This document shows positions 12,674 through 58,437 of a DNA stretch of 64,000 nucleotides, piece after piece. The position numbers and the translations under genes are program-made. Positions within the stretch are counted from its first letter, which is position 1, and each line of letters starts with the position of its first letter. The notes under the pieces are model-generated. The model was not told the DNA's origin, did no database searches, and saw nothing but the letters and a program-made list of their open reading frames with translations. This DNA is from Stentor roeselii (taxonomy: Eukaryota > Ciliophora > Heterotrichea > Heterotrichida > Stentoridae). Where the stretch lies: contig RSEH01000237.1 of NCBI GenBank assembly GCA_006503475.1, positions 1 to 64,000 of the forward strand, read 5' to 3'.

Positions 12674-12678
12674 AATAA

Positions 12679-37534: not shown

Positions 37535-39628
37535 TTAACTGTAAAAGTTGCTGATAGTAAACTTCTTTAAATCTTCGAATATGTTTTTACTAATTAGACC
37601 TTCTTTTCCTTTATCATCTTGAATTTTTTTAACTGATTCTTTTGTTTGAACAAACCAATTGATTGCTTTAATCAAGTTATCTCTTGTAAACTTGAGCTCA
37701 GCTATTGAAATGCTCCATTTTGAAGCTTTTGGATCACTTGAAAGTTTTGAAAGTTTTGAATCTTTTGAACCTTTTGAACCTTTTCCCTTTCCGAAATAAA
37801 TTACCCTGATAACAAAAGTTGTATATTGTTCATTTGTATCGATTATATATTTTGAATAATCTTTTTCAAAAATTTGACTCAAGCCTTTATTTATCGCATA
37901 ATTCTTGTTGTTGTTACCTTGTTTTTTAACTTCGATAATATAAATAGTATCCTTACTGTTTTTAGGCTTTATTAAAAGGTCAATTCTTTTGCCAACCAAG
38001 GTCCTGTGTTCCATTTCCGCATTAAATTCTGCTGTAATTACACTAAAATAAAGCATGACTTGAAAATAAAACTCTGGATAATGCTTTTCTTTAGAGTTTT
38101 TTAGAACCCTTTCTTGAAAAACTTTTATTAAGGTTTTTGGATTTTTAAATTCATTTTCTTTGAGAGTTACATCAAAGAGACTGAATTCTTCTTCGGTTAA
38201 CCAAGCACGAGCCAAATGTTTATAGTATTCATGTCTCACCTCGTTATTTGGGATGCGGAATACATTTTCCAGATCAGTTGAAGTTAAATACCCTGCATCT
38301 AGCATGAGTGTTAAGAGTGAATCTTCACTAAAATGAAGCTTATTAAGTATTATTCCTTCAGTAGGTATGAAGGAGACTTCTTCTGATTTGATTAGAGTAT
38401 CAATTTTACATTTTGTATGCTCATTTTTTGTTTCTTGTTTATTTTTTCTATTTTGTTGAAGCGCTTTTATCAGAAATTGCGGATTACCACTATTCAACCA
38501 ATATTTCTCATAAGGCAATGAATTTTTGGTGGCGATGCTGCTGAGGCAATTCATCACTGACCAAGGATTATATATCATAGTCTTACTAATCCTATACCCA
38601 TTATACAGCCGAGCTATATTTTCTTTTATAATTTCTTCACTTTCAATATCATTCGAGATTTTTTTAACTTTTTTTATCAATTCATTAACTTCTGGTTCAG
38701 TGAACCCATAATGTTGACTATTAGGCGAGTGCTGAACTGAATCGTGGTAGAAATTATTAAGCTCAGAAAATATATCTTCCTTCACGATTCGAGTGATTCC
38801 GGTGAAAACTGACAGTTGAACTAGTTTAGCCCGATATTTAATGAATTTAAAAAGGCTCAAAAACTGGTTAAGTGCAAATTGATATAGCTCAGGTTTTATT
38901 GTTTTTACTTTGAGCAATAAACTATCGTATTCGTCCACAAGAATGATCGGGCTCCTATTATGATGCTTATATAAAGATACTACGAGATAAAGAAGATGAT
39001 CATTAATGATATTTCCTAGTAAAAGTTCCTTATTTTTAGTCAGATACAATTGAAATATTTCTTTATGGTCAGAGTTCTTTACTTTCGGTGAATCAATCAA
39101 GTATTCATGAGCCTGGATTCCGAATTTTATTGCTTCTATAAATCTTAATTTAATAAGATTTTCAGATATTTCTTGGATGCCATCAAAAGTAATAGGAATC
39201 ACGGGTATTGTTCCTTGTAAATCAATAATCTTGGTTTTTCCTAACTCTTTTGTAATTGGAGTTAAAGGTAATTCTTTATCATGAATTAACATCTTAGAAA
39301 AGCATTTTTTTTTTATAGGATCTTCGATAATATCCCCTTTTAATGAGAATTTCGGCTGAAAAAAACTCTCTAGCATCTGTAGGTTAAGTGATTTACCCCA
39401 CCTTCTTGGCCTTGTTATTAGCACAGTTCTATATTTGATTATATCCTTTATCAGCAGCGATTTATCTACACTAAGGATGCTCCCATCAAGCATATCATCA
39501 AACCTATCAATGTTAGGTAATATTTCTAAAGGCGCATCAGGGTTCGCATCATTTGTTGAGAAGGTCCTTCTGATGGCTTGCACAGAGGAGATCGCCTTCC
39601 TTGTATGCCTAGTCAGCCAATTAATCAT
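37535..39628 (-). CDS. AAA-ATPase-like / PD-(D/E)XK nuclease-like protein, copy 1
   Basis: 697 residues, intact. A basic N-terminus (MINWLTRHTRKAISS) resembles a mitochondrial presequence. The leader to the ATPase (IDRFDDMLDG..VDKSLLI) and the Walker A region ITRPRRWGKS (73-80) match the AAA-ATPase_like family known mostly from bacteria (TRPRRFGKS). Walker B is VDEYD at 231-235 and a sensor-like FTGITRI lies near 275-281. The typical LDAGYLT link near 443-449 precedes the C-terminal PD-(D/E)XK-like module: RIDLLI with Asp550, then YIIEVKK with Glu566 and Lys568. An SK-repeat segment (617-636) follows. The combination predicts an ATP-dependent nuclease-like protein, but its role in eukaryotes is unknown. 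Same orientation as three more copies to the right. Confidence 0.85.
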   Translation of the reverse strand: MINWLTRHTRKAISSVQAIRRTFSTNDANPDAPLEILPNIDRFDDMLDGSILSVDKSLLIKDIIKYRTVLITRPRRWGKSLNLQMLESFFQPKFSLKGDIIEDPIKKKCFSKMLIHDKELPLTPITKELGKTKIIDLQGTIPVIPITFDGIQEISENLIKLRFIEAIKFGIQAHEYLIDSPKVKNSDHKEIFQLYLTKNKELLLGNIINDHLLYLVVSLYKHHNRSPIILVDEYDSLLLKVKTIKPELYQFALNQFLSLFKFIKYRAKLVQLSVFTGITRIVKEDIFSELNNFYHDSVQHSPNSQHYGFTEPEVNELIKKVKKISNDIESEEIIKENIARLYNGYRISKTMIYNPWSVMNCLSSIATKNSLPYEKYWLNSGNPQFLIKALQQNRKNKQETKNEHTKCKIDTLIKSEEVSFIPTEGIILNKLHFSEDSLLTLMLDAGYLTSTDLENVFRIPNNEVRHEYYKHLARAWLTEEEFSLFDVTLKENEFKNPKTLIKVFQERVLKNSKEKHYPEFYFQVMLYFSVITAEFNAEMEHRTLVGKRIDLLIKPKNSKDTIYIIEVKKQGNNNKNYAINKGLSQIFEKDYSKYIIDTNEQYTTFVIRVIYFGKGKGSKGSKDSKLSKLSSDPKASKWSISIAELKFTRDNLIKAINWFVQTKESVKKIQDDKGKEGLISKNIFEDLKKFTISNFYS

Positions 39629-39685
39629 TATAAAGATGTCTGATCTCTGAAATTATATTTTTCTACCGTATATAAGTGTTAGGGT
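39629..39685 (-). repeat. Shared 5' flank of AAA/PD-(D/E)XK copy 1 (short)
   Basis: About 55 bp upstream of the ATG, including CTTTATAATG at the start and CTACCGTATATAAGT on the + strand, match the same place in copies 2-4. Beyond it copy 1 diverges, while the other three stay similar for several hundred bases. Likely core promoter of the family. Confidence 0.75.
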
Positions 39686-39732
39686 TTATAGGGGGGGCTT
39701 TAAATTTTGGAAAAAAATGAAAAAATGATGTA

Positions 39733-39857
39733 ATGTTGTCCAGCTGAACTGCTTAAGTATAATCTCTGTTTTCGTCCAGAATTAAAGCTGTATATGAAGT
39801 TGGTTTATTTTTAAAACGAGTCACCAGATGTACCATTTCATTGAAATACAAAAGCCT
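39733..39857 (+). repeat. ~120-bp interspersed repeat, copy a
   Basis: Contains GAACTGCTTAAGTATAAT, CGTCCAGAATTAAAG and CACCAGATGTACCATT. The same sequence occurs inverted at 55950-56092 and 50606-50708. It lies 5' of AAA copy 1, whereas the inverted ones lie 3' of copies 3 and 4, so the three can be read as ends of a family unit, or as independent short insertions. Confidence 0.75.
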
Positions 39858-40330
39858 ATATTATCTATTTTCTGATGGAAAATAGAAAACTCATCTCATG
39901 TATTCCTTGAAAATTCGAACTAAAATAGTCAGAATCGACTTGACTTAGTTAATCCTTTCTCAAAGAATATATCTAAAAGTATAAATAATTACTCTTCAGG
40001 TGATTTATCATTCTTCACTGTTCTAACTAATACGAACATAATCTCCAATAAATTAACGAGATCATTATAAGTGGTCTTTAAAAGAGAAGTTCAAAACTTG
40101 ACTATCCTTAAATCATTCTCATTCTTCATCAATTCTAAATCTATTATAAAATTATCTCTAAAACCAAATCTAAACATCTCTAAAACTAACCAATTTAAAA
40201 CCTATAAAAATCCTTCATTTTTCATTTAACCGAAACTTATAAATCCTAACCTCCTATAAAAATCCCAAACATCCCAAACAAAAACCTCTAAAAATCCCAA
40301 ATTCCCAAATCAATCATTCATTAATATTTT
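39858..40330. other. Intergenic, A/C-rich 5' flank
   Basis: The right part (about 40130-40325) is A/C-rich on the + strand with repeated CTAAAA/CCCAAA words, as before other + strand genes here. No gene seen. Confidence 0.45.
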
Positions 40331-41062
40331 ATGTCATCACGAATCTTTTCTCCCCTGAAAAGAAAAGACCATTGGAACCTCGAAAAGTTCAGCACATCTC
40401 TTCTAGAAAAAGAAATCGAACTAGAAAAAAGTTACAGTCAAGAAGTAATCGAAGAATTAATCACTCTCTACTCAGAGGCAATAGAACATTACAACGAACT
40501 CTCAGACCCCAGGTTCTACGACTTCCAAGACAAGCTCCATTCACTCCTACTTCGTCCTGAGGTTTCATCAGTTCTAAACCGTAAAAACCTGTCATCCCTT
40601 TACAGTTTCTCCAAACGCACCTCTAAACAATCTCAACAACTAGCAATACAAAAGATCTTAGAAAGGTCAAAAACTCCAAAAATCCAAATTTTTTCAAGTC
40701 CTTCAAATCTCTCGAAATCAATTCACCAAAACATGAAAGTTCAAGACTTGAAACTAGTCGAAAAGTTATCATTAAGGAAATCTCAAAGACAAAAAAGAAA
40801 CAGTGAAAGTTTCACATCTTCAACAAATTCAAGTTATTCCCATGAACACAAAAATCAACTCGAAAAAATCATGGAAAAATCGTTTTCTGAAAAATCAAGA
40901 GAAATTTCTGATGTCACTCTTGAGTACCTCTGTAAAATCGATGAGGCTTCTGAAGGGTCTAAAAAGGTTCTAGCTGATGAGATGAAGACTAAAATTATTC
41001 AAATCTCGAAAGTTTATGATGATAAAAGAAGAATGCTTTTGAGGAATTTAAAGTCTTTATAA
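40331..41062 (+). CDS. Hypothetical coiled-coil, Ser/Lys-rich protein
   Basis: 243 residues, no recognised domain. The N-terminal ~110 residues look helical and acidic/basic (LLEKEIELEKSYSQEVIEELI), the middle is a basic, Ser-rich linker (LRKSQRQKRNSESFTSSTNS), and the C-terminal ~70 residues are a probable coiled coil (EKIMEKSFSEKSREISDV). No signal peptide or membrane helix. It converges on the STPG gene with only 3 bp between the stops. Placement in a compact run of intact genes, ordinary codon use and a clean frame support a real gene. Confidence 0.7.
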   Translation: MSSRIFSPLKRKDHWNLEKFSTSLLEKEIELEKSYSQEVIEELITLYSEAIEHYNELSDPRFYDFQDKLHSLLLRPEVSSVLNRKNLSSLYSFSKRTSKQSQQLAIQKILERSKTPKIQIFSSPSNLSKSIHQNMKVQDLKLVEKLSLRKSQRQKRNSESFTSSTNSSYSHEHKNQLEKIMEKSFSEKSREISDVTLEYLCKIDEASEGSKKVLADEMKTKIIQISKVYDDKRRMLLRNLKSL

Positions 41063-41065
41063 ATA

Positions 41066-42076
41066 TTAAACCCACTTATTGTTTGGCTTTAAATGAAAGG
41101 ATTTTTTCTTTGTTTGGATCACTGGCTTGTAAAAAGCGGGACCTGGAGGCTTTTTCTCGGTTTTTAACCAAATTCGCTCGCTTTCTGACATGAATACTGC
41201 TCCTGAAACGTTTATCTTGTGAGGAGAGTAGTTTGGTTCATAGTCTCCTGGAGCTGGTAATGCTTGGATTACTTTTGGCTGCTTGCTTTTACCGAATCGG
41301 TCTTTTCCGCTGTTGGCGAACATTGAACTTGGACGGGATGCATCGAAACGGTCTTTGGAATTTATTTGCTTTAGAGCTTCCATTGGCTCGGGTTGGTATT
41401 CTCCAGGGCCTGGAGTGATTACTGGTAAATGTTGGGCGTGCGGGTCATAGAGATTTCCTTGATATCTCTTAGCATTCACAGGCATCTTAAAAACTGATGT
41501 CAAAGCAGCAGAAGAACTTCTAGTTAATGCATAATTCGGAGTATACTGCCAAGGAGCAGGAGACTCTTTGCTCATCACTTCTAATCTTTTCGAGTTACTT
41601 TTAAAAACAGAGGTCAATTCTTTTGTTGAAAACTGAATGGCAGGGTCGTATTGTCCAGGAGCTGGCATTTCTTGAACCTTTTTCAAACTCTTTGTTTTCC
41701 CAAGGGTAATCGTGAAGCCACTCGAGACAGTTGAAGCGGGCTGGTTGTAACTACCAGGACCGGGATTAGTGTTCACATATTGATACTTCTTAAACCTGGG
41801 TGCTGAGTTAGTCAATCCCCCAAACCCCTTCTTACTAACCGAAGGGTTATCCCCCAAGTTATTACTATACGCTCCCGGTCCAGGCAATCTCGAAGCACTA
41901 GAAGTAAACCTCGACGCAGAGCTTCCAAACCCTTCTTTTTTCTCATCCGATTTCAAAAGTGACTCTCCCTTGGTCGGAATAGAAGCCTGAGTAAGTCGAT
42001 TATAAGCATCAACAACCGACCCTCTACACAATTTTCCAAAAACTTCTTTCCCAGCCTGCCTAAAAGAAGTATCCAT
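41066..42076 (-). CDS. SHIPPO/STPG-repeat (sperm-tail PG-rich) protein
   Basis: 336 residues with seven PG-rich repeats: LPGPGAYSNN, NPGPGSYNQP, MPAPGQYDP, SPAPWQYTP, TPGPGEYQPE, LPAPGDYEPN and PPGPAFYKP, spaced by 30-50 residues. The C-terminus KKSFHLKPNNKWV is also typical. STPG/ODF3-type proteins bind ciliary and flagellar microtubules, several as microtubule inner proteins, which suits a heavily ciliated cell. The fourth repeat has lost the central PG (APW). Start at 42076 follows TATAA directly; the upstream Rab stop on the same strand is 22 bp away. A related fragment occurs as a relic at 55632-55725. Confidence 0.85.
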   Translation of the reverse strand: MDTSFRQAGKEVFGKLCRGSVVDAYNRLTQASIPTKGESLLKSDEKKEGFGSSASRFTSSASRLPGPGAYSNNLGDNPSVSKKGFGGLTNSAPRFKKYQYVNTNPGPGSYNQPASTVSSGFTITLGKTKSLKKVQEMPAPGQYDPAIQFSTKELTSVFKSNSKRLEVMSKESPAPWQYTPNYALTRSSSAALTSVFKMPVNAKRYQGNLYDPHAQHLPVITPGPGEYQPEPMEALKQINSKDRFDASRPSSMFANSGKDRFGKSKQPKVIQALPAPGDYEPNYSPHKINVSGAVFMSESERIWLKTEKKPPGPAFYKPVIQTKKKSFHLKPNNKWV

Positions 42077-42098
42077 TTATAATCTAATTAATTATTAC

Positions 42099-42701
42099 TC
42101 AGCAACACTTCTTCTTCTTACGAGATATCGATTTCGATCGATCCTTAACAGTCACAGTGTCTCTTCTCACAGGAATCACTTCCTGTTCATCAGGAAATAA
42201 TTTAAAAGCAAGTTCTTTGAAAATTTGTTCTACTCCAAAGTTAGTCTTCGCTGAGGTTTTTTTAAAAACAGCTCCAATCGACTTGGCCCAAGTAGAAACT
42301 TCATCAGGCGACACTGCTTCAGACTCGACTAAGTCTTCCTTGTTGCCAGCGACGACGACTGCCATTTCTTTGGGGCCGGATTCGGTCAGTTCTCGATGCC
42401 ATTTCTTGAGGCCTTCGTAGCTGCCTCGCTTGGTGATGTCGTAAACCATGATGGCGGCGTTTGCATCGCGATAGTACATTTTGGCTAAGCTGTGGTATCG
42501 CTCTTGGCCGGCAGTGTCCCAGATATTGAACTTTATTGTTTTATCTCCCACTTGGAGACTCTTACCCATATATGATGCACCTAATGTTGCTTCTGGGTCT
42601 GATTTGAAGTTGTCCGCGACGAAACGGACTACGATACTTGACTTGCCGACACCTGAGTCTCCCAGAAGTACGACCTTGATTTGAATTGGAGCTTTGCTCA
42701 T
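42099..42701 (-). CDS. Rab GTPase, Rab5/22-like
   Basis: 200 residues with all G motifs: GDSGVGKSS (P-loop), a switch I Thr in EATLGASYMGK, WDTAGQERY (G3), GNKEDL (G4) and SAKTN (G5). The C-terminus is basic and ends KKKKCC, a dicysteine site for geranylgeranylation. The switch I and G3 regions (TLGASYMGKSLQ, AKMYYRDANAAIMVYD) best resemble the Rab5/Rab21/Rab22/31 group of early endosomes, but fine placement needs a tree. All nucleotide-binding residues, including the switch II Gln, are present. It is divergent from the pseudo-hydrolase at 42724 with 22 bp between starts and is followed after 22 bp by the STPG gene. Confidence 0.93.
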   Translation of the reverse strand: MSKAPIQIKVVLLGDSGVGKSSIVVRFVADNFKSDPEATLGASYMGKSLQVGDKTIKFNIWDTAGQERYHSLAKMYYRDANAAIMVYDITKRGSYEGLKKWHRELTESGPKEMAVVVAGNKEDLVESEAVSPDEVSTWAKSIGAVFKKTSAKTNFGVEQIFKELAFKLFPDEQEVIPVRRDTVTVKDRSKSISRKKKKCC

Positions 42702-42723
42702 TTTATATTGCTCCTAATGAAAA

Positions 42724-43653
42724 ATGTCAAATCTCTCAAAGAAATACGAGGAAGTAATCCAAAGCATCATCCGACCATTCCGTGAAACATACTCAATTTC
42801 CGATTTAGGACCAGATCTATTCGAAATATCCGGAAAGTCCTTCACTCGTCGAGACTTAATCCTACTAAACTCAAGTAACCAGCGACTTCAATGTTCATTT
42901 TACACCCAGTCCGTTCCAGTGATCCTTCCTTGCGTAATTTATTTACACACCCACAACAGTTCAAGACTAGAAGCTCGAGAGATACTTCCAGTTCTTCTCC
43001 CCAGCAATATAAATGTTTTTACTTTCGACTTCTCAGGATCTGGACTATCAGAAGGTGAATTCGTGACTTTAGGGTGGAACGAAAAAGAAGACCTGAAGAC
43101 TGTGATTGAATTTATTAGAAATGAAGAGAAAGCTACTTGTATTGGACTCTGGGGAAGAGGCATGGGAGCTGTCACAAGCCTTTTATATGCTGATCAAGAC
43201 CCTTGCATAGGAGGCATCGTTTTAGACAGTCCTTTTTTGTCTTTAAAGATGCTGGCTGAGGAGGAACTAGAGAAAAGAAGCAGTCTTCCAGGTTTTATCA
43301 AATCCTCTGCTTTTGCCTTTGTCAGAAAAACTATTCTTGCCAAAGCGAAATTCGACGTCAATGATATTAACACCCTGGAACATGTGATGCATACTTTTGT
43401 CCCAGCAATATTTTCAAGGGCTTCAGAAGACGAGTGCATCAGTGAACATCATCTTCAAGACTTATACTCTGCTTACTTAGGTGAGAAAAAACTTGTGAAA
43501 TTTTCAGGAAATCACAACAGTAGACGTCCGAATTACTTTTTAGATTCAGTGGCGATATTTTTTTATAACTGTCTTCAATGTGAAAGTATTTTCATCCCTG
43601 CAGGATTGACTGAAAACAAAGAAAATTCAGACGACAGTTATGAAATCTTGTAA
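42724..43653 (+). CDS. Alpha/beta-hydrolase-fold protein lacking the nucleophile Ser
   Basis: 309 residues. The fold matches protist alpha/beta hydrolases of the ABHD17-like/serine aminopeptidase type: VIYLHTHNSSR, FDFSGSGLSEGE and GLWGRGMGAVTSLLY. The nucleophile elbow should read GxSxG (family GRSMGA); here it is GRGMG, with Gly146 (GGC) in place of Ser. The Asp (RASEDE, residue 236) and His (SGNHNSRRP, residue 264) positions remain. The rest is well kept and the frame is open, so this looks like a catalytically dead scaffold or binding protein rather than a broken gene. Convergent with the EF-hand gene, stops 6 bp apart. Confidence 0.85.
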   Translation: MSNLSKKYEEVIQSIIRPFRETYSISDLGPDLFEISGKSFTRRDLILLNSSNQRLQCSFYTQSVPVILPCVIYLHTHNSSRLEAREILPVLLPSNINVFTFDFSGSGLSEGEFVTLGWNEKEDLKTVIEFIRNEEKATCIGLWGRGMGAVTSLLYADQDPCIGGIVLDSPFLSLKMLAEEELEKRSSLPGFIKSSAFAFVRKTILAKAKFDVNDINTLEHVMHTFVPAIFSRASEDECISEHHLQDLYSAYLGEKKLVKFSGNHNSRRPNYFLDSVAIFFYNCLQCESIFIPAGLTENKENSDDSYEIL

Positions 43654-43659
43654 GCTTAG

Positions 43660-44205: not shown

Positions 44206-44214
44206 TTTTTATTA

Positions 44215-46074: not shown

Positions 46075-46081
46075 TATAATG
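46072..46081. promoter_or_regulatory. Bidirectional start palindrome CATTATAATG (second copy)
   Basis: Same 10-bp palindrome as at 15151-15160, again made of two ATG codons with TATA between them, here for the coiled-coil and acyl carrier protein genes. Confidence 0.5.
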
Positions 46082-46354: not shown

Positions 46355-46390
46355 TCTAAAGTTCTTAGAACTTCTTAATAATCTCTTCAA

Positions 46391-47791: not shown

Positions 47792-48035
47792 TCTTTAGTT
47801 TAAGGCTGTTAAATAATATTTTAGATTTAAGAATTAATTTGAAGCTCAATGCCATAAGAAATTTGATTAGGAATGGTTTAATGTCTAGTTATTCTATAAG
47901 AAAATTTTATTAATGATTACTAATCACAAACTTACAAGTAATTATTTCTCTAAATTTCTATAATCATAACTATTCTTCATATCCTTACTCATTTCCTTAA
48001 TTACTCTTCTATTTAATCTCATAAAACCTAATTAC

Positions 48036-50123
48036 TTAACTGTAAAAGTTGCTGATAGCAAACCTCTTCAAATCTTCGAATATGTTTTTACTTTCCAGAA
48101 CCTCTTTTCCTTTATAATCTTGAATTTTTTTAACGGATTCTTTTGTTCGAACAAACCAATCGATTGCTTTAATCAAATTTTCTCTTTTAAACCTCACCTC
48201 TGCTATTGAAATATTCCATTGTAAATCTGTTGGATCATTTGAAACTTTTGAAAATTTTGAATCTTTTGAAAATTTTGAAACTTTTTCCTTTTCGAAGTAA
48301 ACTAACCTGATAACAAAAGTTGTATATTGTTCATTTGTATCGATTATATATTTTGCGTAATCTTTTTCAAATATTTGAGTCAAGCCTTGATTTATGTCAT
48401 AATTCTTGTCGTTGCTACCTTGTTTTTTAACTTCGATTATATAAATAGTATCCTCATTGTTTTTAGGCTTTATTAAAAGATTGATTCTCTTACCAACCAA
48501 GGTATTATATTCTAATTCCGCAGTAAATTCTGTAGTTATTACACTAAAATAAACCATGACTTGAAAATAAAACTCTGGATAATCCTTTTCTTTAATATTT
48601 TTTAAAACTCTTTCTTGAAAAACTTTTCTTAATGTTTCTGGATTTTCAAATTCATTTTGTTTGAGTTTTACATCAAAGAGTCTGAATTCTTCTTCAGTTA
48701 ACCAAGCACGAACAAAATGTTTATAGTAATCATCTCTCACTTCATTATTTGGTATGCGGTATATTTTGTTTCTATCAGTTGAAGTTAAATACCCTGCATC
48801 TAGCATGAGTGTTAATAGTGAATCTTCAGTAAAATGAAGGTAATCAGTTTCCATTCCTTCAGAAGGTATGAAGTACACTTCTCCTGATTTGACTAAAGTA
48901 TCAATTTTACATTGCTCATTTTTTGTTTCTTGTTTATTTTTTCTATAATCTTGAAGCGCTTTTATCAGAAATTCCTGATAATCGGTACTCAACCAATATT
49001 TCTGATAAGGTGATGATTTTTTGGTGGCTAGACGGCAGAGGCAATTCATCACTGACCAAGGATTATATATCATAGTCTTATTAATCTTATAACCATAATA
49101 CAGCCGAGTCATATTTTCTTTGATAATATCTTCACTCTCAATATCATTTGTAATTTTTTTCACCTTTTTTATCAATTCGTTCACTTCGAGTTCAGTAAAT
49201 CCAAAATGTTCAGTATGGTATGGGTCCAGAACTGAATCGTGATAGATATTATTGAGCCCAGAAAACATATCCCCATCCGTGAATCGAGTTATTCCGGTGA
49301 ACACTGAGAGTTGAACTAGTTCAGCACATTTTTTAGTAAATGAAAAAACCCTAAGAAACAGGTTAATTGCATATTCATATAGCTCAGGTCTCATTGTTTT
49401 TATTTTGACGAATAAACTGTCGTATTCGTCCACAAGTATAATTGGTTTCTTATTATGATGCTCATTTAAAGATTCTACGAGGTACAGCAGATGATCACCA
49501 ATCTGTTCGCTAAGAATAAATTCATTATCTTGATATAAATACATTTTAAATATTTCTTGATGGTGAAGGTAATTTAATTTTGGTGAATCCTTCAAGTATT
49601 GATGATGCATGAATCCTTTTCTGATTGCCTTTATAAGTTCCAATTTAATCCCGTGTTTTGATATTTCATTGATGGTATCAAAAGTAATAGTAATCACGGG
49701 TATTGTTCCTTGTAAATCGATAATCTTGGTATTTTCTAATTTTTTTGTAAGTGGATTTATGAAAAATTCTTGATCACCAATTAACATATTAGAAAATTTT
49801 TCTTTTTTTATAGGATCTTCGATAATATCCCCTTGTAATGAGAGCTTTGGCTGAAAAAAACTCTCTATCATCTGTATATTAAGTGATTTACCCCACCTCA
49901 TTGGCCTTGTTATTAGCACAGTTTGATGATTGAGTATATCATTTATCAGCAGTGATTTATCAACATGAAGGATGTTCCCATTAAGCATATCATCAAACCT
50001 ATCAATGTTAGGTAATATATCGAAAGGTTTATCGAGGTTAGCATCATTCGTTGAGAGGGTCCTTTTGATGGCTTCTACAGAGGAGATCGCCTTCCTTGTA
50101 TGCCTAGTCAGCCAATTAATCAT
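48036..50123 (-). CDS. AAA-ATPase-like / PD-(D/E)XK nuclease-like protein, copy 2
   Basis: 695 residues, intact, same design as copy 1: presequence-like N-terminus (MINWLTRHTRKAISS), Walker A variant RPMRWGKS (Arg to Met), Walker B VDEYD, FTGITRF, LDAGYLT link, and a nuclease-like core with RINLLI then YIIEVKK. Here the first acidic residue of the core is Asn (RIN for RID), which may weaken metal binding. The SK-repeat linker differs from copy 1 (FSKDSKFSKVSND). The 3' end shares about 35 bp of flank with copy 1; upstream, several hundred bases match copies 3 and 4. Confidence 0.82.
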   Translation of the reverse strand: MINWLTRHTRKAISSVEAIKRTLSTNDANLDKPFDILPNIDRFDDMLNGNILHVDKSLLINDILNHQTVLITRPMRWGKSLNIQMIESFFQPKLSLQGDIIEDPIKKEKFSNMLIGDQEFFINPLTKKLENTKIIDLQGTIPVITITFDTINEISKHGIKLELIKAIRKGFMHHQYLKDSPKLNYLHHQEIFKMYLYQDNEFILSEQIGDHLLYLVESLNEHHNKKPIILVDEYDSLFVKIKTMRPELYEYAINLFLRVFSFTKKCAELVQLSVFTGITRFTDGDMFSGLNNIYHDSVLDPYHTEHFGFTELEVNELIKKVKKITNDIESEDIIKENMTRLYYGYKINKTMIYNPWSVMNCLCRLATKKSSPYQKYWLSTDYQEFLIKALQDYRKNKQETKNEQCKIDTLVKSGEVYFIPSEGMETDYLHFTEDSLLTLMLDAGYLTSTDRNKIYRIPNNEVRDDYYKHFVRAWLTEEEFRLFDVKLKQNEFENPETLRKVFQERVLKNIKEKDYPEFYFQVMVYFSVITTEFTAELEYNTLVGKRINLLIKPKNNEDTIYIIEVKKQGSNDKNYDINQGLTQIFEKDYAKYIIDTNEQYTTFVIRLVYFEKEKVSKFSKDSKFSKVSNDPTDLQWNISIAEVRFKRENLIKAIDWFVRTKESVKKIQDYKGKEVLESKNIFEDLKRFAISNFYS

Positions 50124-50590
50124 TATAAAGATGTCTGATCTCCGAAATTATATTTTTCTACCGTATATAAGTAGAGCTAAATAAAATTGGTTCTTAAGGA
50201 ATGCAACAATAATAAAAATTTGAGTTAAGTATTAGTTCTTGATTAAGTATTTTAAGTTTTCTAGTTTATTGAATGGACTTTGGAAAAATTTTGAATTTAT
50301 TTCCAGATTTAAAGTTTTAAAATTTGATTGATTCACATATCCTTATATTATAATCAGTTTAACTAGTCAAGTCTTAATCACTACAAGAATTCAATTCTTC
50401 AGTTAGAGGAAAATCATTTAAGGGTAAAATTACTTCAAATAAAATTTTTATTTGTTCTATTTTATATACTTGCGAATTTTATAAAACTAAAGTACTAGCC
50501 TATATATTTCAATAAAATAAATTTATTCGATTTATCATAAGATATTATTCAACTCCAAAATTCAAAAGTACATCAATCTTGTATATCTCC
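50124..50590 (-). repeat. Shared 5' flank of AAA/PD-(D/E)XK copy 2
   Basis: First ~170 bp nearly identical to the flanks of copies 3 and 4, then increasingly diverged (still alignable to about 50590). Contains the common CTACCGTATATAAGTAGAGCTAA block. Suggests duplicated promoter DNA. Confidence 0.8.
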
Positions 50591-50605
50591 ATAAGCGCCT
50601 TATTT

Positions 50606-50708
50606 CGTCTAAACCTGGCGACTCTTTATAAATTAAAGCAAGTTCATGTACAGCCTACCTCTAAACACTTTAATTCTGGACGAAGACAGGTATTATTCTT
50701 TAAAATTT
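50606..50708 (-). repeat. ~120-bp interspersed repeat, copy c
   Basis: Inverted relative to 39733-39857: on the minus strand it reads CTTCGTCCAGAATTAAAG, GTAGGCTGTACATGAACTTG and AAGAGTCGCCAG. It lies about 270 bp left of the 3' end of AAA copy 3, within DNA also shared with the region left of copy 4. Confidence 0.75.
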
Positions 50709-50978
50709 GAGATAAAAAAATGTTGATAAACATTTGAAGAGGGTAGTTAACTAAATATTGAACTGAGATACACAGAACTTATAAAGATCAACCTGAAATT
50801 GGAGAGTAAGAGTCAGATGTGATAAATTGACAAAGTCATTACGAGACTCATACTTAAGTCGTCCATCTAGCTAGTGAACTACAATTTTCAGTATATACTG
50901 CATGTGGCCTAGCTTATTGTAATACTCTACTATTTTATCTCAAAAAAACCTAATTATTCTAACTGCTGATCTAATTAT

Positions 50979-53080
50979 TTAACTGTAAAAGTAGCTGATA
51001 GCAAATTTCTTGAAATCTTCGAATATGTTTTTACTAATTAAAACTTCTTTTCCTTGATCATCTTGATTTTTTTTAACTGATTCTTTTGTTTGAACAAACC
51101 AATCGATTGCTTTAATCAAGTTATCTCTTGTAAACTTAAGCTCAGCTATTGAAATACTCCATTGTGAATTTTTTGAATTTTTTGAAAATTTTGAAAATTT
51201 TGAAACCTTTGAAACTTTTGAATCTTTTGAATCCTTTGAGTCTTTGTTCATTTCGAAATATACTACCCTAATAACAATAGTTGTAAATTGTTTCTTTATA
51301 TTGATAACATAATCTGCATATTTTTCAAAAATTTGATTCAAGCCTTTATTTATGTCATAATCCTTGTCATTGCTACCTTTTTTTTTAACTTCAATGATAT
51401 AAAAAGTATCCTCACTGTTTTCAGGTTGTATTAGCAGATCAATTCTTTTGCTATCCGAAGTTTTTTGTTCCAATTCCGCATAAAAATCTTCTGTTCCGAT
51501 ACTAAAATAAAGCATGACTTGAAAATAAAACTCTGGATAATGCTCTTCTTTAAGATGTTCAAGAACTTTTTCCTGAAAAACTTTTATCAAGATTTTTGGA
51601 TTTTCAAATTCATTTTGTTTGATTTTTACGTTATAGAATGTGAATTCTTCTTCGGTTAACCAAGCAGCAGCCAAATTTTTATAGTAATCATATCTCACCT
51701 CGTTATTTGGAATGCGAAATACATTTTCCCTATCAGTTAAAGTTAAATACCCTGAATCTAGCATGAGCGTCAAGAGTGAATCTTCACTAAAATGAAAATT
51801 ATTAAGTTCTATTCTTTCAGAAGGTATGAAGTACACTTCTCCTGATTTGATTAAAGTATCAATTTTACATTCCTTATTTTTTGTTTCTTCTTTATTTTTT
51901 CTATATTCTTGAAGAGCTTCTATCAGAATTCCCAGATTACCACTCTTTAACCAGTATTTCTTATAAGGTGATGGAGTTTGATTAAACAGATGATATAAAC
52001 AATTCATCACTGACCAAGGATTATAAATTATAGTATTTTGTTTTCTATATCCGTTATAAACTCGAACCATATTTTCTTTGATTGTTTCTTGACTATCAAT
52101 AACATTCTTCGAGAATTTTTTAACTTTTTTTATTAATTCGTCAACTTCGAGTTCAGTGAACCCATAATGTTCACTATAGGATCCTTGTGAAACTGAATCG
52201 TGAATGAAATTATTGAGTCCAGAAAAAAAATCCTCATTCGCTATTCTAGTTATACCAGTGAACACTGAGAGTTGGATTATTTCAGCACAATTTTTAATAA
52301 ACGAAAAAACCCTCACAAACAGGTTAATTGCATATTGATAGAGTTCAGGATGCATAGTCTTTATTTTTACCAATAATCTGTCGTATTCGTCGACTAGGAT
52401 TATCGGTTTTCTGTTATGGTGAATGTTTAAAGATTCTACGAGATACATTAGATGATTACCAATCTGTTCGCTAAGAATAAATTCATTATCTTGACCTAAA
52501 TACATTTTAAATATTTCTTGATGGTGAGGGTACTTTAATTTTGGTGAATACTTCAAATATTGATGATGTCTAATTGCCTTTTTGATTGCCTCTATAAATT
52601 CTAATTTGATTCCGTCTTCAGATATTTCTTGAATGGTATCAAAAGTAATAGGAATCACGGGTATTGTTCCTTGTAAATCGATAATCTTGGTATTTCCTAA
52701 TTTTTTTGTAAGTGGATTTATGAACAATTCTTGATCACCAATTAACATATTAGAAAAGCTTTCTTTTTTTATAGGATCTTCAATAATATCCCCTTCTAAT
52801 GAGAACTTCGGCTGAAAAAAACTCTGTAGCATCTTGAGGTTTAGTGATTTGCCCCACCTCCTCGGCCTTGTTATTAGCACAGTTTGATGATTGATTATAT
52901 CCTTTATCAGCAGTGATTTATCTACATGTAGGCCTCATCGAGAATATAATCATAGGTCTGAATGTCAGCTATTATATTGAAAGGTTTATAGAGGGTTGCA
53001 TCATATGTTGAGAAGGTCCTTTCGATGGCTTTTACAGAGGAGATCGCCTTCCTTGTATGCCTAGTCAGCCAATTAATCAT
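50979..53080 (-). pseudogene. AAA-ATPase-like / PD-(D/E)XK protein, copy 3 (N-terminal frame break)
   Basis: The N-terminus MINWLTRHTRKAISS is present from the ATG at 53080, but after about 60 codons the frame is lost. Relative to copy 2, about 4 bases are missing near 52923-52935, just before VDKSLLI. The downstream frame is then open for over 630 codons with Walker A RPRRWGKS, VDEYD, FTGITRI and the nuclease-like RIDLLI/YIIEVKK core; there is no in-frame ATG before Walker A. Copy 4 carries the same deletion, so it predates their duplication or spread by conversion. A long SK-repeat (about 12 units) lies near the end. Whether any protein is made is unclear. Left and right flanks are shared with copy 4. 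Confidence 0.7.
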
Positions 53081-53812
53081 TATAAAGATGTCTGATCTCC
53101 GAAATTATATTTTTCTACCGTATATAAGTAGAGCTAAGTAAAATTGGTTCTTAAGGAATGCAACAATAATAAAAATTTGAGTTAAGTATTGGTTCTTGAT
53201 TAAGTATTTTAAGTTTTCTAGTTTATTGAATGGACTTTGGAAAAATTTTTGAATTTATTTGGTTCTTTTCGAGATTTAAAATTCAATTGATTTAAATATC
53301 CTTCTATTTTAATCAGTTTAAGTAGTCAAATCTCAATAAGTACAAGAATTTAATTCTTAAGTTAGAGAAAATCATTTGAGGGTAAAAAGTTGCTTCAAAA
53401 TAAATTTTTATTCGTATATGAATTCATTCTGTTTTGGATGCATACAAATTTTATTAGACTGAAGTAATAGTGTATTCAATGAAATAAAATAAATTTATAC
53501 AATTATTATGAGGATTCAACTTCAAAATTCAAAAGTGCATCAATCTTGGAGTATCTCCAATCTTTCAATTATGAGCCTATATTTCAATGAAATCTCATTA
53601 TTGAATCGCATTTTTAATAGTAGAGTATGTCAAGATGAGCATGTCCAACTGTTGAACACCTTTTAACAGGTGAATAATTTTTATGATAAATTTAGATATT
53701 TTATAAGTAGGATAGCTGAGTAAGAATAGAATTTTTTAGAATAAACTACCTTTAAATAAATCGTTCATATCCATCAACTCTAAAACTATAAACTTTACAT
53801 TACTAGATTTTC
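53081..53812. repeat. Duplicated 5' flank of copy 3 (near-identical to 58438-59176)
   Basis: About 480 bp from 53101 appear identical to 58461 onward, then a few substitutions and small indels appear up to the lipase relic. Compared with about 4-5% difference in the adjoining N-terminal coding part and more further along, the flank is unusually conserved. Confidence 0.85.
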
Positions 53813-54261
53813 CTATTCAAAAATAAGTTGCCTTAGGATAAAAACACTATCATCAACACATACCAAATGAGCAGGGATTTCTAAATGATTCCCAAAGCAA
53901 AGTGTTCCATGAATAAACCCAGGATACTCAAAAATCTCGACATCAACCCCATTCCCCAGAAGTCTATCAACAAACTCTAAAGTATCATAAGCCAAAGGGT
54001 CATCTAAAGTAAGCAATACCCTAGTTCTTGGGAATTTTTTAAGTAATTGATCATGAGCATATTCCAAAGGCGAGACAAGAAAATTCCTCATTCTTTCAGA
54101 TCATTCACATAATATCTGGGAAACTCTTTAAAAAGCTTGTAATGCAGTTGGTCATCCTGGAGACTTCTGAGTAATCCTAAAGAGACTCGAGACATATCCC
54201 AATTAATACAAGGATAAGAAGCGAGTAAGTTTGAGCAAGTCGATATTCGACTGAAAAGACC
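53813..54261 (-). pseudogene. Relic of hormone-sensitive-lipase-like gene (C-terminal part)
   Basis: Minus-strand frame 53813-54091 is a near copy of the last ~90 residues of the intact gene at 59177-60781 (with the Asp and His of the triad), and the rest of the relic follows it base for base. Two deletions remove the remainder: one of about 185 bp after the GCGAG at 54210, and one of about 1.7 kb that runs through the lipase N-terminus and the neighbouring gene's 5' part. At about 54261 it joins directly to the leucine-rich-repeat relic. Confidence 0.85.
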
Positions 54262-55631
54262 GGTGCTTACCTGCCTGCTTGGGTCTTCTTATCCTCTGAT
54301 GAACCTGAGCCTATCCCACATTCAGTTCAAGGTCTTCTCGTTCGCGCAGCCCTTATGAAAGAAAAAGTTTTGCATTCATTCGGCATCTGGAACAACCCTC
54401 TGGACTTTGCGAAGCTAATATCGATAGAGGGAGCTGACATTAAGCAAGACCCTGCGCCAATAAAAGAGAACCTTTCAGTTCGCTCAATATAAAGAGGCAG
54501 TCACTATAAGACTGGCAAAGGTGCTTCGGTCCTCATAAATCGCCACTATCGAAATCGACCCGATATGAATGATGCACCTGAAGAATGGAGATTTATATTG
54601 AAAAGCACAATCAGCAGCCCTTTGATTAAATGGAGCAACTCCTCGCCCGTCATTCAAGGCATCCAAAAACTTTAAAACAGCACAGGTCCCAAGAAGTACC
54701 TAAAGACCTGAAAGACTTAAGTTCCGCGAAACTTGGCCGAGGGATCAACGAGTCGTTTCGCACTTCTCCAGAACAAGACTCCTCACAAGACCATGACTCG
54801 CAAGGACTCCAGGTAAGGAAAATGTCTGATAATTGTGGAAAACAAGAACACCAAAGAAATCAACTTCTGTAAATCAACTTTTTTGAAGTAACTGAAAAGA
54901 CGATCGTTGAGCAAGTTTTGACGGTATGATCAAGAAAAAAAAGAACTTGAAGAAATGTTTAATTTTTACATGAACCAAACTGATATTCATATGGAAAGAA
55001 TGAGCAGAAAATTACTGCTAGTCGAAGAGGCGAACGATGCAGAGGACTATATTAAAAAATCGAAGGTCTTGAATTCAAAGAACTTTACCAGCTCAGCTCT
55101 AGAGGCTCAAGTCTCACCAGAGTGTCGGAAAAAGCATGAAAATAGCTTAGAAATCAGCAAGTTCAAGAATTCAACGATAATGAACAGTCTATCAACTCAG
55201 ACTCCATAAGGGAAGAATCAATAATTTAGAAAAAAAGATAAAAAAATGAAAAAAAATTAAGAAATTTGCATAGAACTGTTAAGCGCTATGATATGAAATA
55301 TTCAGGGAAAAGTTCCAAGGTTTTGAGGGCATTCTCAAGACTTTGCACATACTCCTAAAAAATTTTCGGCTTAAAAATACGAAATCGACCCAGAAAAAAA
55401 GGATCGGTTTTTTAATTTACTTGTTTATGCTTTAAGTGTTGCTATCAGTGCTTTGATGGAAAAGCTAAAAATATGTAATAATATGACTCGTTTTATATAA
55501 ATCGCAATCGTTTTAAAAGCTCTGCTGAAGGTAAAAGTTCATGAAGTGCTAAACTGAGACAGGGCTCGAAGTCTACAGGCTTTACTATTGAAGGGGATAG
55601 GCCTTTTATTAGAAAGTTCAGACTTGACTAA
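54262..55631 (+). pseudogene. Relic of the leucine-rich-repeat gene
   Basis: Aligns with the intact gene at 61062-63068 from its LRR part to its last codons (GGGGATAGGCC..TTAGAAAGTTC near 55600-55620). It has many frame changes and stops, and even the region equivalent to the third 15-nt intron (GATATGAAATATTCAG near 55290) can be seen. The 5' part, including both first exons, is deleted. Clearly non-functional; more diverged from its parent than the flanking 53.1-54.1 kb DNA is from its duplicate. Confidence 0.85.
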
Positions 55632-55725
55632 GAAACCGGTTTGAAGAAACCAGGCTAAGTTCAATTTTCGCCAACAGCGAAAAACAGATACAGTAAAAAC
55701 AAGCAGCCTAAGTAATACAAGCACT
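55632..55725 (+). pseudogene. Fragment resembling the STPG-repeat gene
   Basis: The stretch reads TTCGCCAACAGCGAAAAAC then AGTAAAAACAAGCAGCCTAA, closely matching the STPG gene's sense strand (41210-41330, minus strand) around FANSGKDRFGKSKQPKVIQA. It carries in-frame stops. It directly follows the end of the LRR relic, with nothing similar after the intact LRR gene at 63068, so it arrived by a separate event or from a paralogue elsewhere. Confidence 0.65.
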
Positions 55726-55949
55726 CTCTGTTAAACTAATTGGGGCTCCCAAGAGATCCTCGAAGAGCACTTAAGTGGCCCCAAGTTGTCCTCGATGAGT
55801 CCCGAGTATTAATTTTCTGCAATTTTAACTAAATTCTTCAAGACTGGATTGATTAATCAGGTCAGATTCTTACAACTTTAAATCATTAGTTCCAAGTTTT
55901 CAAGCGACATGAGTATTTATATGCAAATCTTGAAAGATTTACGATAATA
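55726..55949. other. Intergenic with a short GC-rich direct repeat
   Basis: At about 55740-55800 two imperfect units occur in tandem (GCTCCCAAGAGATCCTCGAAGA and GGCCCCAAGTTGTCCTCGATGA, each shown in part), GC-richer than the rest. Origin unknown. Remaining sequence AT-rich. Confidence 0.4.
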
Positions 55950-56092
55950 CAAACTTCTGTATTTCACTGAATGGTACATCTGGTGGCTCTTTATAAATTA
56001 AGCCAAGTTCATGTATAGCCTACCTCTAAAAACTTTAATTCTGAACGAAACAGATATTATACTTAAGCAGTTGAGCTGGATAATTATTTTGA
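55950..56092 (-). repeat. ~120-bp interspersed repeat, copy b
   Basis: Minus strand reads CTCAACTGCTTAAGTATAAT, CGTTCAGAATTAAAG, GTAGGCTATACATGAACTTG and GCCACCAGATGTACCATT. Inverted copy of 39733-39857, about 250 bp left of the 3' end of AAA copy 4. Confidence 0.8.
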
Positions 56093-56344
56093 CTGAAATT
56101 TAAAATAGCCGTAGATTCAAGATTGAGCTTAGGTACACAACTGACAAAGATTATTTTTAATTTTTAAGAGTCAGGTGTGATTCAATTGACAAAGTCTTTA
56201 CGAGACTCATACTTAAATCGTCCATCTAGCTAGTGAGATATAAATAGCTCTTAATTAATTTCAGATTTCCATAAATAACTCATTATAATACTCTTTTATT
56301 TAATCTCATAAAAACCTAATTATTCTAAATATTGACCTAATTAC

Positions 56345-58437
56345 TTAACTATAAAAGTTGCTGATAGTAAAATTCTTCAAATCTTCGAATATGTTTTTAC
56401 TAATCAGATTTTCTTTTTCTTTATGATCTTGAATTTTTTTAACTGATTCTTTTGTTTGAACAAACCAATCGATTGCTTTAATCAAGTTATCTCTTGTAAA
56501 CTTGAGCTCAGCTATTGAAATACTCCATTGTGAATTTTTTGAATCATTTGAAAATATTGGAAATTTGGAATCTTTTGAAATATTTGAAACTTTTGAATCT
56601 TGGTTCATTTCGAAATAAACTACTCTAATAACAATAGTTGTAAATTGGTTATTTTTCTTGATGATATAATCTGCATATTTTTCAAAAATTTGATTTAAGC
56701 CTTTGTTTATGTCATAGCCCTTGTTGTTGCTACTTTTTTTTTTAACTTCGATTATATAAATAGTATCGTCTCTGTTTTTAGGCTGTATTAATAGATCAAT
56801 TCTTTTGCTGTCTGAGGTTTTGTGTTCCAATTCTGCATCAAAATCTGCTGTTTCGATACTAAAATAAAGCATGACTTGAAAATAAAACTCTGGGTAATGC
56901 AGTTCTTTAGAGTAATTAAGAACTTTTTCTTGAAAAACTTTTATTAATGTTTCTGGATTTTCAAATTCATTTTGTGTGAGTGTTACATTAAAGAATTTTA
57001 ATTCTTCTTCGGTTAACCAAGCACTAGCCAAATGTTTATAGTAATCATATCTCACCTCGTTATTTGGGATGCGAAATACATTTTTCCTATCAGTTAAAGT
57101 TAAATACCCTGAATCTAGCATGAGCGTCAAGAGCGAATCTTCAGAAAAATGGAGCTGATTAAGTTCTATTCCTTCATTAGGCATGAAATGCACTTCTCCT
57201 GATTTGATTAAAGTATCAATTTTACATTCCTTATTTTTATTAACTTCTCTATTTTTTCTATATTCTTGAAGCGCTTTTATCAGAACTTTCGGACTACCAC
57301 TATTCAACCAAAATTTCTTATAAGGTGATGGAGTTTTATTAACCAGATGATATAAACAATTCATCACTGACCAAGGGTTATAAATCAATGTATTGTTTAT
57401 TCTATACCCGTTATAAAGCCGAGCCATATGTTCTTTAATTGTTTCTTGACTATCAGTGACATTTTTCGACATTTTTTTAACTTTTTTTATCAGTTCGTCA
57501 ACTTCTGGTTCAGTGAACCCATAATGTTTATTATAGGATCCTTCAATTACTGAATGGTGAAATAGGTTATTCAGTCCAGAAAAAAAGTCCTCTTTCCCGA
57601 TTCGGGCTATCCCGGTGAATACAGTTAGTTGAACTACTTCAGGATACTTTTTGATAAAAGAAAAAACTCTCACAAACATGTTAAGTGCATATTGATATAA
57701 CTCAGGATGCGTAGTCTTTATTGTTACTAGTATTCTATCGTACTCGTCGACTAGGATTATCGGTTTTCTGTTGTGGTGGATGTTTAAAGCTTCAACGAGG
57801 TACAGCAGATGATCATAGATATCTTCTCTAAGAATAAATTTTTTATTTTTACCTAAATACATTTCGAATAGTTCTTGATGGTCAGGGTACTTTAATTTTG
57901 GTGAATTCTTCAAGTATTGATGATGCATGATTCCCCTTTTGATTGCCGCTATAAATTCTAATTTAATATTTTTTTTAGATATTTCTTGAATGGTATCAAA
58001 AGTAATAGGAATTACGGGTATTGTTCCTTGTAAATCGATAATCTTGGTAATTTCTATTTTTTTTGTAAGTGGATTTATGAACAATTCTTGATCACCAATT
58101 AACATATTAGAAAAGCTTTCTTTTTTTATAGGATCTTCAATAATATCCCCTTCTAATGAGAACTTCGGCTGAAAAAAACTCTGTATCATCTTGAGGTTTA
58201 GTGATTTACCCCACCTCCTTGGCGTTGTAATTAGCACAGCTTCATGATCGATTATATCCTTTATCAGCAGTGATTTATCTACATGTAGGCCTCATCGAGA
58301 AGATTATCATAGGTCTGAAGGTCAGATAATATTTTGAAAGGTTTATAGAGGTTTGCATCATATGTTGAGAAGGTCCTTTTGATGGCTTTTACAGAGGAGA
58401 TCGCCTTTCTTGTATGCCTAGTCAGCCAATTAATCAT
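56345..58437 (-). pseudogene. AAA-ATPase-like / PD-(D/E)XK protein, copy 4 (N-terminal frame break)
   Basis: Same arrangement as copy 3, with the ATG at 58437, the shared ~4-base deletion before VDKSLLI, and a downstream frame open for about 630 codons. Walker A is TPRRWGKS, Walker B VDEYD, the sensor-like FTGIARI, and the nuclease-like core RIDLLI/YIIEVKK is kept. The SK-linker is shorter than in copy 3. Protein identity to copy 3 is roughly 80% by eye, lower than nucleotide identity of the neighbouring flank. Also sits immediately left of the intact lipase gene, forming duplicated block B. Confidence 0.7.

What the first reader, a model, noticed from the sequence alone, without database searches (positions are those of the whole stretch)
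37535..58437. Four-copy family of AAA-ATPase-like/PD-(D/E)XK proteins in a ciliate
Four same-strand genes share a degenerate Walker A (RPRRWGKS type), VDEYD Walker B, FTGI(T/A)R sensor-like motif and a C-terminal RIDLLI...IIEVKK nuclease-like core. This domain pair is known mostly from bacteria and a few eukaryotes with large expansions. Locally clustered copies with shared promoters and repeats suggest recent amplification; it may be a selfish or defence-related module, or a bacterial acquisition.
Basis: partly seen in the sequence, partly recalled or inferred. Interest (0 to 1): 0.75.

Follow-up and report, generated by a model that had tools for sequence, protein, structure and literature searches.

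The report
Mitochondrion-targeted bacterial-type nuclease family in ciliate
A single-celled ciliate carries dozens of related genes for a bacterial-style, ATP-driven DNA-cutting protein; they appear to have gained an address tag for the mitochondrion, and about half seem to have lost the ability to cut, which hints at a mitochondrial defence or selfish gene system.

Summary
In detail: four minus-strand genes at 37535-58437 encode PF09820 ATPase / PF08011 PD-(D/E)XK (DUF1703) proteins. They are part of a larger family: 51 loci on 30 contigs of a 44.4 Mb genome, about 26 with full-length ORFs. The host is a ciliate, probably a heterotrich.

New here: (1) members start with a ~23-residue Arg-rich, acid-poor presequence like those of Hsp60 and ATP synthase of the same genome; bacterial relatives lack it. 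(2) The nuclease residues D-E-K are complete in 93 of 93 scorable bacterial relatives but 14 of 29 long ciliate copies, with at least 9 changes on the tree, while the P-loop GK[ST] is kept in 27 of 27 scored. (3) A family promoter is conserved, and copies 3 and 4 share a 4-nt deletion inside a 93-100% identical 5' tract, a sign of gene conversion.

The ciliate clade is old; its nearest sampled relatives are Rickettsiales-type. The ATPase fold is STAND/ORC-like. Best guess: mitochondrion-imported, NTP-gated nucleases plus nuclease-dead partners used in genetic conflict. Import, cutting and role are inferred.

The parts
37535..39628 (-). Copy 1: full-length DUF1703 protein, 697 aa; the only one of the four with start codon, P-loop and nuclease residues all in place
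39557..39628 (-). Copy 1 codons 1-24: predicted mitochondrial presequence MINWLTRHTRKAISSVQAIRRTF|S
   Evidence: for control proteins
39389..39412 (-). Copy 1 degenerate Walker A RPRRWGKS (73-80)
38924..38938 (-). Copy 1 Walker B VDEYD (231-235)
37922..37987 (-). Copy 1 PD-(D/E)XK core: RIDLL (D550) to IIEVKK (E566, K568)
48036..50123 (-). Copy 2: full-length 695 aa; the catalytic Asp position is Asn (RINLL, 48474-48488) and Walker A reads RPMRWGKS
50052..50123 (-). Copy 2 codons 1-24: presequence (one acidic residue)
50979..53080 (-). Copy 3: 5' part (53080-52925) and long frame (52931-50982) lie in different frames because of a 4-nt deletion against the siblings at the 52932/52933 junction; nuclease residues present
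56345..58437 (-). Copy 4: same 4-nt deletion, junction 58289/58290; long frame 58288-56348; nuclease residues present
50615..54227 (.). Segment duplicated at 55980-59592 (90% overall); upstream region and gene start 93-100% identical in 150-base steps, rest of the coding part 81-94%, 3' flank 73-79%
55980..59592 (.). Partner segment of the duplication
39629..39688 (-). Copy 1 conserved upstream sequence (family promoter, inferred): ...ATACGGTAGAAAAATATAATTT...ATCAGACATCTTTATA directly before ATG
50124..50183 (-). Copy 2 conserved upstream sequence
53081..53140 (-). Copy 3 conserved upstream sequence
58438..58497 (-). Copy 4 conserved upstream sequence

Best explanation
A nuclear multigene family of bacterial-type DUF1703 proteins (STAND/ORC-like AAA+ NTPase plus C-terminal PD-(D/E)XK nuclease) that was probably acquired once from an intracellular, Rickettsiales-like bacterium, given an N-terminal mitochondrial presequence, and amplified by duplication and gene conversion. 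Shown: domains, copy number, presequence features, conserved upstream sequence, repeated loss of nuclease residues with the P-loop retained, dN/dS below 1. Inferred: the proteins enter mitochondria and the presequence is cut near F|S/T; the NTPase works as a nucleotide switch that assembles the protein and releases the nuclease on foreign or damaged DNA in or near the organelle (a conflict or defence role); nuclease-dead members act as sensors, scaffolds or brakes in mixed complexes.
Against: No localisation, expression or activity data. The strict acid-free test is met by only 1 of 4 mitochondrial controls (3 of 4 with one acidic residue allowed), and the 75 background ORFs are mechanical ORFs, not verified genes. 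Amphipathicity does not clearly exceed shuffles in L006, L010, L016, L035 and L036 of 12 members tried. The ATPase is not untouched either: the Walker B Glu is replaced in 5 of 29, and the Walker A arginines 75 and 76 in 4 and 3 of 27. The predicted nuclease region has low confidence (pLDDT mostly 38-67). ORC/Cdc6, TnsC and a mitoribosome protein match the ATPase nearly as well as NLRs. No neighbouring gene points to defence; PADLOC has no match. Donor placement rests on a long stem, and no eukaryotic homologues could be sampled.
Confidence: 0.5

Rival explanations
1. Selfish toxin-antidote genes: nuclease-competent members poison cells or progeny, and nuclease-dead paralogues neutralise them by joining their oligomers; amplification and gene conversion follow from drive.
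For: About half of the long copies have broken nuclease residues but kept P-loop and long ORFs. Neighbouring competent/dead pairs occur in the window (copies 1 and 2) and on C379, head to head (L027 competent, L014 with Lys for the catalytic Glu). The Cardinium paper states that a bacterial DUF1703 homologue is part of the Tribolium Medea selfish element (PMC6387759 section 14), and a review says Medea's Tc1 insertion holds a gene apparently of bacterial origin (PMC3144190 passages).
Against: With half of the copies dead, such neighbours are expected by chance; I did not test this. Dead members arose many times and are no single antidote lineage. No drive data.
Confidence: 0.15
2. A cellular mitochondrial DNase: the family supplies the DNase used in programmed nuclear death or mtDNA turnover.
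For: Tetrahymena mitochondria hold a strong DNase that works with AIF and is unidentified; no EndoG homologue was found there (PMC2829475 passages). A mitochondrial presequence on a predicted nuclease fits.
Against: A housekeeping nuclease is not expected to lose its catalytic residues in half of its copies or to leave so many broken copies. No link to Tetrahymena was testable.
Confidence: 0.12
3. A decaying repeat family without present function: an old bacterial gene spread by duplication, with copies at various stages of loss; the N-terminus only resembles a presequence.
For: About 25 of 51 loci are broken, fragmentary or cut by contig ends, the nuclease is often dead, GC is low (0.30 vs 0.39 in nine other window CDS).
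Against: About 26 full-length ORFs, dN/dS below 0.7 in all 33 close pairs, P-loop kept in 27 of 27 scored, upstream boxes shared by paralogues only 40-50% identical, presequence features in members of both deep clades.
Confidence: 0.15
4. Genes of an endosymbiont assembled into the host genome.
For: Rickettsiales-type relatives carry many copies (29 matches in one Rickettsia genome).
Against: In the window the copies sit between Rab, kelch-BTB and other eukaryotic genes, the sampled ciliate copies form one clade, and they carry the added N-terminus. Neighbours of copies on other contigs were not examined.
Confidence: 0.02

Closest known systems
DUF1703 / PF09820-PF08011 proteins of bacteria (PMC1913061; Cardinium cCpun expansion, PMC6387759)
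   Same: Same domain order, RPRR[FW]GK[ST] Walker A, DEYD Walker B, PD-(D/E)XK core; large expansions in intracellular bacteria; recombination between paralogues
   Different: Presequence, an insert between the P-loop helix and the next strand, a longer C-terminus, nuclease residues lost in half of the long copies, ciliate nuclear genes with common upstream boxes
Bacterial gene in the Tribolium Medea element (Lorenzen 2008 as cited in PMC6387759 section 14; original not read)
   Same: A DUF1703 homologue of bacterial origin in a eukaryotic nuclear genome
   Different: There a gene inside a composite Tc1 element; here dozens of copies with a mitochondrial presequence and no transposon seen
STAND NTPases: NLRs, CED-4/Apaf-1, Avs
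   Same: Predicted fold of about residues 34-480; NTPase joined to an effector domain
   Different: Nuclease at the C-terminus, no repeat sensor domain found, variant Walker A; ORC/Cdc6 and TnsC score close behind
Ciliate mitochondrial DNase of programmed nuclear death (PMC2829475)
   Same: A nuclease expected in ciliate mitochondria
   Different: That activity is described as EndoG-like and is unidentified; no test connects them

Membership tests
DUF1703 (PF09820 + PF08011) | PF09820 ATPase domain over the curated cut-off | tested here: met
   4 of 4 window copies; 45 of 46 genome matches over the cut-off
DUF1703 (PF09820 + PF08011) | PF08011 nuclease domain over the curated cut-off | tested here: met
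   3 of 4 window copies; 17 genome matches; 0 of 5 divergent members scanned
DUF1703 (PF09820 + PF08011) | Catalytic D, E and K of the nuclease | tested here: inconclusive
   Complete in 14 of 29 long ciliate copies, in 93 of 93 bacterial rows with residues there (97 rows in all)
Mitochondrial presequence proteins | Arg-rich, acid-poor N-terminus with a processing-site-like motif | tested here: met
   33 of 43 and 37 of 43 vs 5 of 75 and 11 of 75 background ORFs; both rules set after seeing the sequences
Mitochondrial presequence proteins | Amphipathic helix | tested here: inconclusive
   Moment mean 0.49 family, 0.50 four controls, 0.29 in 75 ORFs; not above shuffles in several members
Mitochondrial presequence proteins | Import and cleavage | not testable with these tools
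   needs an experiment
STAND NTPases | NBD-helical-winged-helix fold | tested here: inconclusive
STAND NTPases | Signal-driven oligomerisation | not testable with these tools
   -
Anti-phage defence families (PADLOC) | Match to a PADLOC model | tested here: not met
   0 matches for the 4 proteins tried at E up to 0.1
DNA transposon | Terminal inverted repeats around the copies | tested here: inconclusive
   No inverted pair of 60 nt or more in 34000-64000; shorter ones not sought
Medea-type toxin-antidote | Linked toxin and antidote with segregation distortion | not testable with these tools
   -

The most novel reading that the evidence does not exclude
A mitochondrion-resident, NLR-like conflict system: a bacterial STAND-nuclease family domesticated by a ciliate, in which nuclease-competent and nuclease-dead paralogues, driven by one type of promoter, assemble into mixed complexes that police DNA of mitochondria or of bacteria that enter them (or drive as toxin and antidote).
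Probability: 0.2. Interest if true: 0.88.

Novelty: new variant of a known kind. Interest (0 to 1): 0.62.

Why it matters
DUF1703 proteins are scattered over bacteria, multiply in intracellular bacteria and turn up in a beetle selfish element, yet their role is unclear (PMC6387759 section 14). A eukaryotic branch that gained a mitochondrial address and repeatedly shed its nuclease gives a direct way in: localise it, knock it down, compare competent and dead members. It also bears on an open ciliate question, the identity of the mitochondrial DNase (PMC2829475 passages), and on whether eukaryotes place NLR-like machines inside organelles. Bacterial-like inclusions in mitochondria are reported from Spirostomum minus (PMC11678095 passage), and a Rickettsiaceae symbiont was found in the macronucleus of a Spirostomum (PMC3748036 passages); that Spirostomum is a heterotrich is recalled.

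Tried and rejected
Subtelomeric clustering: copies lie near contig ends more often than uniform, but the 14 contig ends printed there show no telomere-like repeat by eye and several contigs begin or end inside a family copy (C144, C337, C368, C379, C393), so I read this as assembly breakage.

15-nt introns as the cause of in-frame stops: one clear and one probable 15-nt intron in an Hsp60-like control gene (read by eye). For family copies L003, L020, L038 and L041 no 15- or 16-nt GT..AG covers the stop; L005 has one, but it would remove residues that its siblings keep.

Programmed frameshift or intron in copies 3 and 4: not needed. The deletion lies in a tract of 93-100% identity, which suggests conversion and can explain why the long frames still show dN/dS 0.36. 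I did not test conversion with a formal method.

My first cleavage pattern (Arg exactly at -3, no acidic residue) was too strict: 10 of 44 family vs 2 of 84 ORFs (the two are Hsp60 and ATP synthase beta). The looser patterns were chosen after seeing that, so their counts are exploratory; both rules together: 28 of 43, 1 of 75, 1 of 4 controls.

Donor: with the long Simkania branch in, that sequence joins the ciliates (96/96); without it ciliates plus Rickettsiales-type sequences are one side of a branch at 100/96. Unrooted, and the bacterial set is mostly the best 80 of at least 490 by similarity to copy 1.

Also looked at: plasmids (49 records) and phage records (25), identity 21-28% in the rows listed; viral contigs, 8 loci at 24-28%. 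No match in NCBIfam (4 proteins) or PADLOC (4 proteins); PDB by sequence gave 0 rows and 4 rows at E 0.025-0.14; one weak PHROG for copy 1. Structure matches in viral models were weak. In print: searches for PF09820, DUF1703 (17), PDDEXK_9 (55), 'AAA-ATPase like' with ciliate (56) and 'AAA-ATPase-like domain-containing' (76) listed no paper on such a ciliate family; subscription journals are mostly not held.
Full report
OBSERVATION. Pfam finds PF09820 in all four and PF08011 over its cut-off in three. A translated self-search shows copy 2 72% and copies 3 and 4 about 69% identical to copy 1. Copies 1 and 2 have full ORFs. The long frames of copies 3 and 4 begin without ATG; their start region (ATG at 53080 and 58437) runs into a stop because both lack four nucleotides that the siblings have. 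Of the four, only copy 1 has start, P-loop and nuclease residues in place; copy 2 has Asn at the catalytic Asp.

LOCAL HISTORY. Segment 50615-54227 is duplicated at 55980-59592. Identity in 150-base steps is uneven: 95-100% over most of the upstream region (450 bases identical), 93-98% over the gene start, 81-94% over the rest of the coding part and 73-79% downstream. Noncoding DNA more alike than coding DNA suggests a recent conversion of the 5' tract, which would have carried the deletion from one copy to the other. Between copies 3 and 4 the long frame has dS 0.275 and dN/dS 0.36, like other family pairs, so it was probably under selection before the lesion spread.

WHOLE GENOME. The window is contig C158:1-64000 of a 44.39 Mb, 522-contig genome. 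PF09820 gives 46 matches there, 45 over the cut-off, PF08011 17; copy 1 as query gives 69 matches, which I grouped by hand into 51 loci on 30 contigs (list). The tool calls its counts lower bounds. There are 29 ORFs of 600 aa or more; leaving out window copies 3 and 4 and L005, which a stop cuts short, 26 look full length (one, L018, runs off its contig). The other 25 are broken, fragments, cut by contig ends, or in one case (L030) without a nuclease hit. Clusters sit on C144, C476, C158, C379 and C337. Control searches of 14 well-known prokaryote genomes found neither domain.

HOST. TAA ends all four long frames, seven of the eight CCT genes and the ATP synthase genes fetched are long open frames from an ATG under the standard code (L052 lacks an ATG near its start), and an Hsp60-like gene carries one clear and one probable 15-nt GT..AG intron (by eye). 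Tiny introns are known from Stentor (PMC9371601 passage citing Slabodnick 2017). With Rab, kelch-BTB and cNMP-gated channel genes in the window this fits a ciliate, most likely a heterotrich. The species was not identified.

PRESEQUENCE. In 6 of 7 annotated plasmid records the bacterial protein begins within 16 residues of the aligned ATPase region; Butyrivibrio has a longer, unlike start (alignment). Over 92 of 97 bacterial ORFs the median from the first Met to the conserved Asp-Lys is 24 residues against 54 in copy 1; Rickettsia- and Wolbachia-type frames can start about as early as the ciliate ones, but without the Arg-rich stretch. The ciliate addition is M[FI]xWLxRNxxSSxKxIRKRF|ST in the main clades and MFAR..RN..K.I..RNF|T in the deepest one. 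It resembles the N-termini of Hsp60 (MLSRISSTFSRSLIRSF|GAK) and ATP synthase beta (MVMRSLSRVFSNPVSRFF|SEA) of the same genome, not those of CCT or V-ATPase (one CCT, L058, has an RHFS stretch). Counts: at least three K/R and no D/E in residues 1-21 in 33 of 43 family N-termini, 5 of 75 other ORFs, 1 of 92 bacterial ones and 1 of 4 mitochondrial controls; with one acidic residue allowed 42 of 43, 15 of 75, 3 of 4. R-x(0-2)-[FLYIV]-[STAG] at 13-30: 37 of 43, 11 of 75, 6 of 92, 4 of 4. Mean hydrophobic moment: 0.49 family, 0.50 controls, 0.29 other ORFs. Against it: in L006, L010, L016, L035 and L036 of 12 members tried, 31-74% of shuffles reach the observed moment. The presequence is as conserved as the ATPase inside the family (0.45 vs 0.46) but less across the deepest split (0.24 vs 0.37), as expected for a signal kept for its properties. 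That presequences end in such motifs is recalled knowledge.

UPSTREAM BOXES. ATACGGTAGAAAAATATAATTT about 25-45 bases upstream and TCAGACAT[CA]TTTATA directly at the ATG recur in the main clade; the C144 group keeps a variant of the first and the second nearly unchanged; the deep clade has CAGCCATATATATAA or less, L010 and L030 neither; nine control genes lack both (by eye). In the window the second box occurs only at the four genes. That it is a promoter is inferred.

NUCLEASE LOSS. In an alignment of 97 bacterial and 29 ciliate proteins, D550-E566-K568 (copy 1 numbering) is complete in 93 of 93 bacterial sequences that have residues there and in 14 of 29 ciliate ones; replacements are N, E, G or Y for D, K or Q for E, I or M for K. 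Counting D-to-E as intact leaves 12 broken. On the family tree the state changes 10 times (9 with D-to-E as intact; starred branches force 9). P-loop GK[ST] is kept in 27 of 27 (copies 3 and 4 were not scored because the listed protein starts after it), Walker B Asp in 29 of 29; but the Walker B Glu is replaced in 5 of 29 and the Walker A arginines 75 and 76 in 4 and 3 of 27, so some ATPases may be impaired too. The bacterial set was found with patterns on the P-loop and a mid-region motif, so its P-loop conservation is partly by selection, its nuclease conservation is not. All 33 pairs above 60% identity have NG86 dN/dS 0.27-0.69 (the pairs overlap).

ORIGIN. Best bacterial hits are an alphaproteobacterial MAG (31%), Wolbachia wTex (30%) and a Rickettsia of Bradysia (29%), then mostly Clostridia. 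The genomes behind these three hold 10, 4 and 29 matches. Sixteen sampled ciliate sequences form one clade at 100/99 with a long stem. Without the long Simkania branch, eight ciliate and seven Rickettsiales-type sequences form one side of a branch at 100/96. I call the alphaproteobacterial MAG Rickettsiales-type only because it groups there. One old acquisition from such a bacterium is the simplest reading; the trees are unrooted, no other eukaryote could be sampled and the reverse direction is not excluded.

MECHANISM AND RIVALS. I favour import into mitochondria and an NTP-gated DNA-cutting role in conflict, with dead members as partners or brakes. Toxin-antidote drive has a precedent in the DUF1703 gene of Tribolium Medea (PMC6387759 section 14); competent and dead copies sit side by side in the window and on C379, which chance could give. 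A mitochondrial DNase for nuclear death is a live question in Tetrahymena (PMC2829475 passages). Plain decay is argued against by dN/dS, upstream boxes and presequence. Endosymbiont contamination is argued against by context and the added N-terminus.

STANDING. The proteins are DUF1703 members by domain tests. As a eukaryotic, presequence-bearing, half nuclease-dead branch with its own upstream boxes they are a new variant of a known kind; five literature searches listed no description.

Noticed in passing
54262-55635 vs 61482-63072: A second stretch of the local duplication (70-76% identical) covers part of the ORF at 61275-62732 and its downstream region; between it and copy 3 only the 3' end of the hydrolase gene (59177-60781, Abhydrolase_3) was kept, so the duplicated block lost part of that gene.
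   Followed up: partly
12625-14151 (-) and 23613-25199 (+): Two inverted, 70% identical genes for transmembrane amino acid transporters (PF01490).
   Followed up: no
1-145 and 3099-3243: A 145-bp direct repeat, 91% identical, at the contig start.
   Followed up: no
L060 (C108:9228-10727): A second, divergent Hsp60-like gene with one clear and one probable 15-nt intron, beside the Hsp60 gene on C19.
   Followed up: partly
L031 and L032 (both ends of C393): Closely similar family genes run off both contig ends in opposite orientation, and the two contig ends are reverse complements of each other; probably an assembly break at a repeat.
   Followed up: partly
L030 (C121:64894-66150): A divergent ATPase-only member of 453 aa without a nuclease domain hit, with a presequence-like start.
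   Followed up: no
C379:12183-14276 (-) and 15530-17623 (+): A head-to-head pair of family genes, 81% identical, one nuclease-competent (L027) and one with Lys for the catalytic Glu (L014).
   Followed up: no
L170, L179 and the genome of L094: The Rickettsia endosymbiont of Bradysia coprophila holds at least 29 DUF1703 matches in about 2.3 Mb.
   Followed up: no
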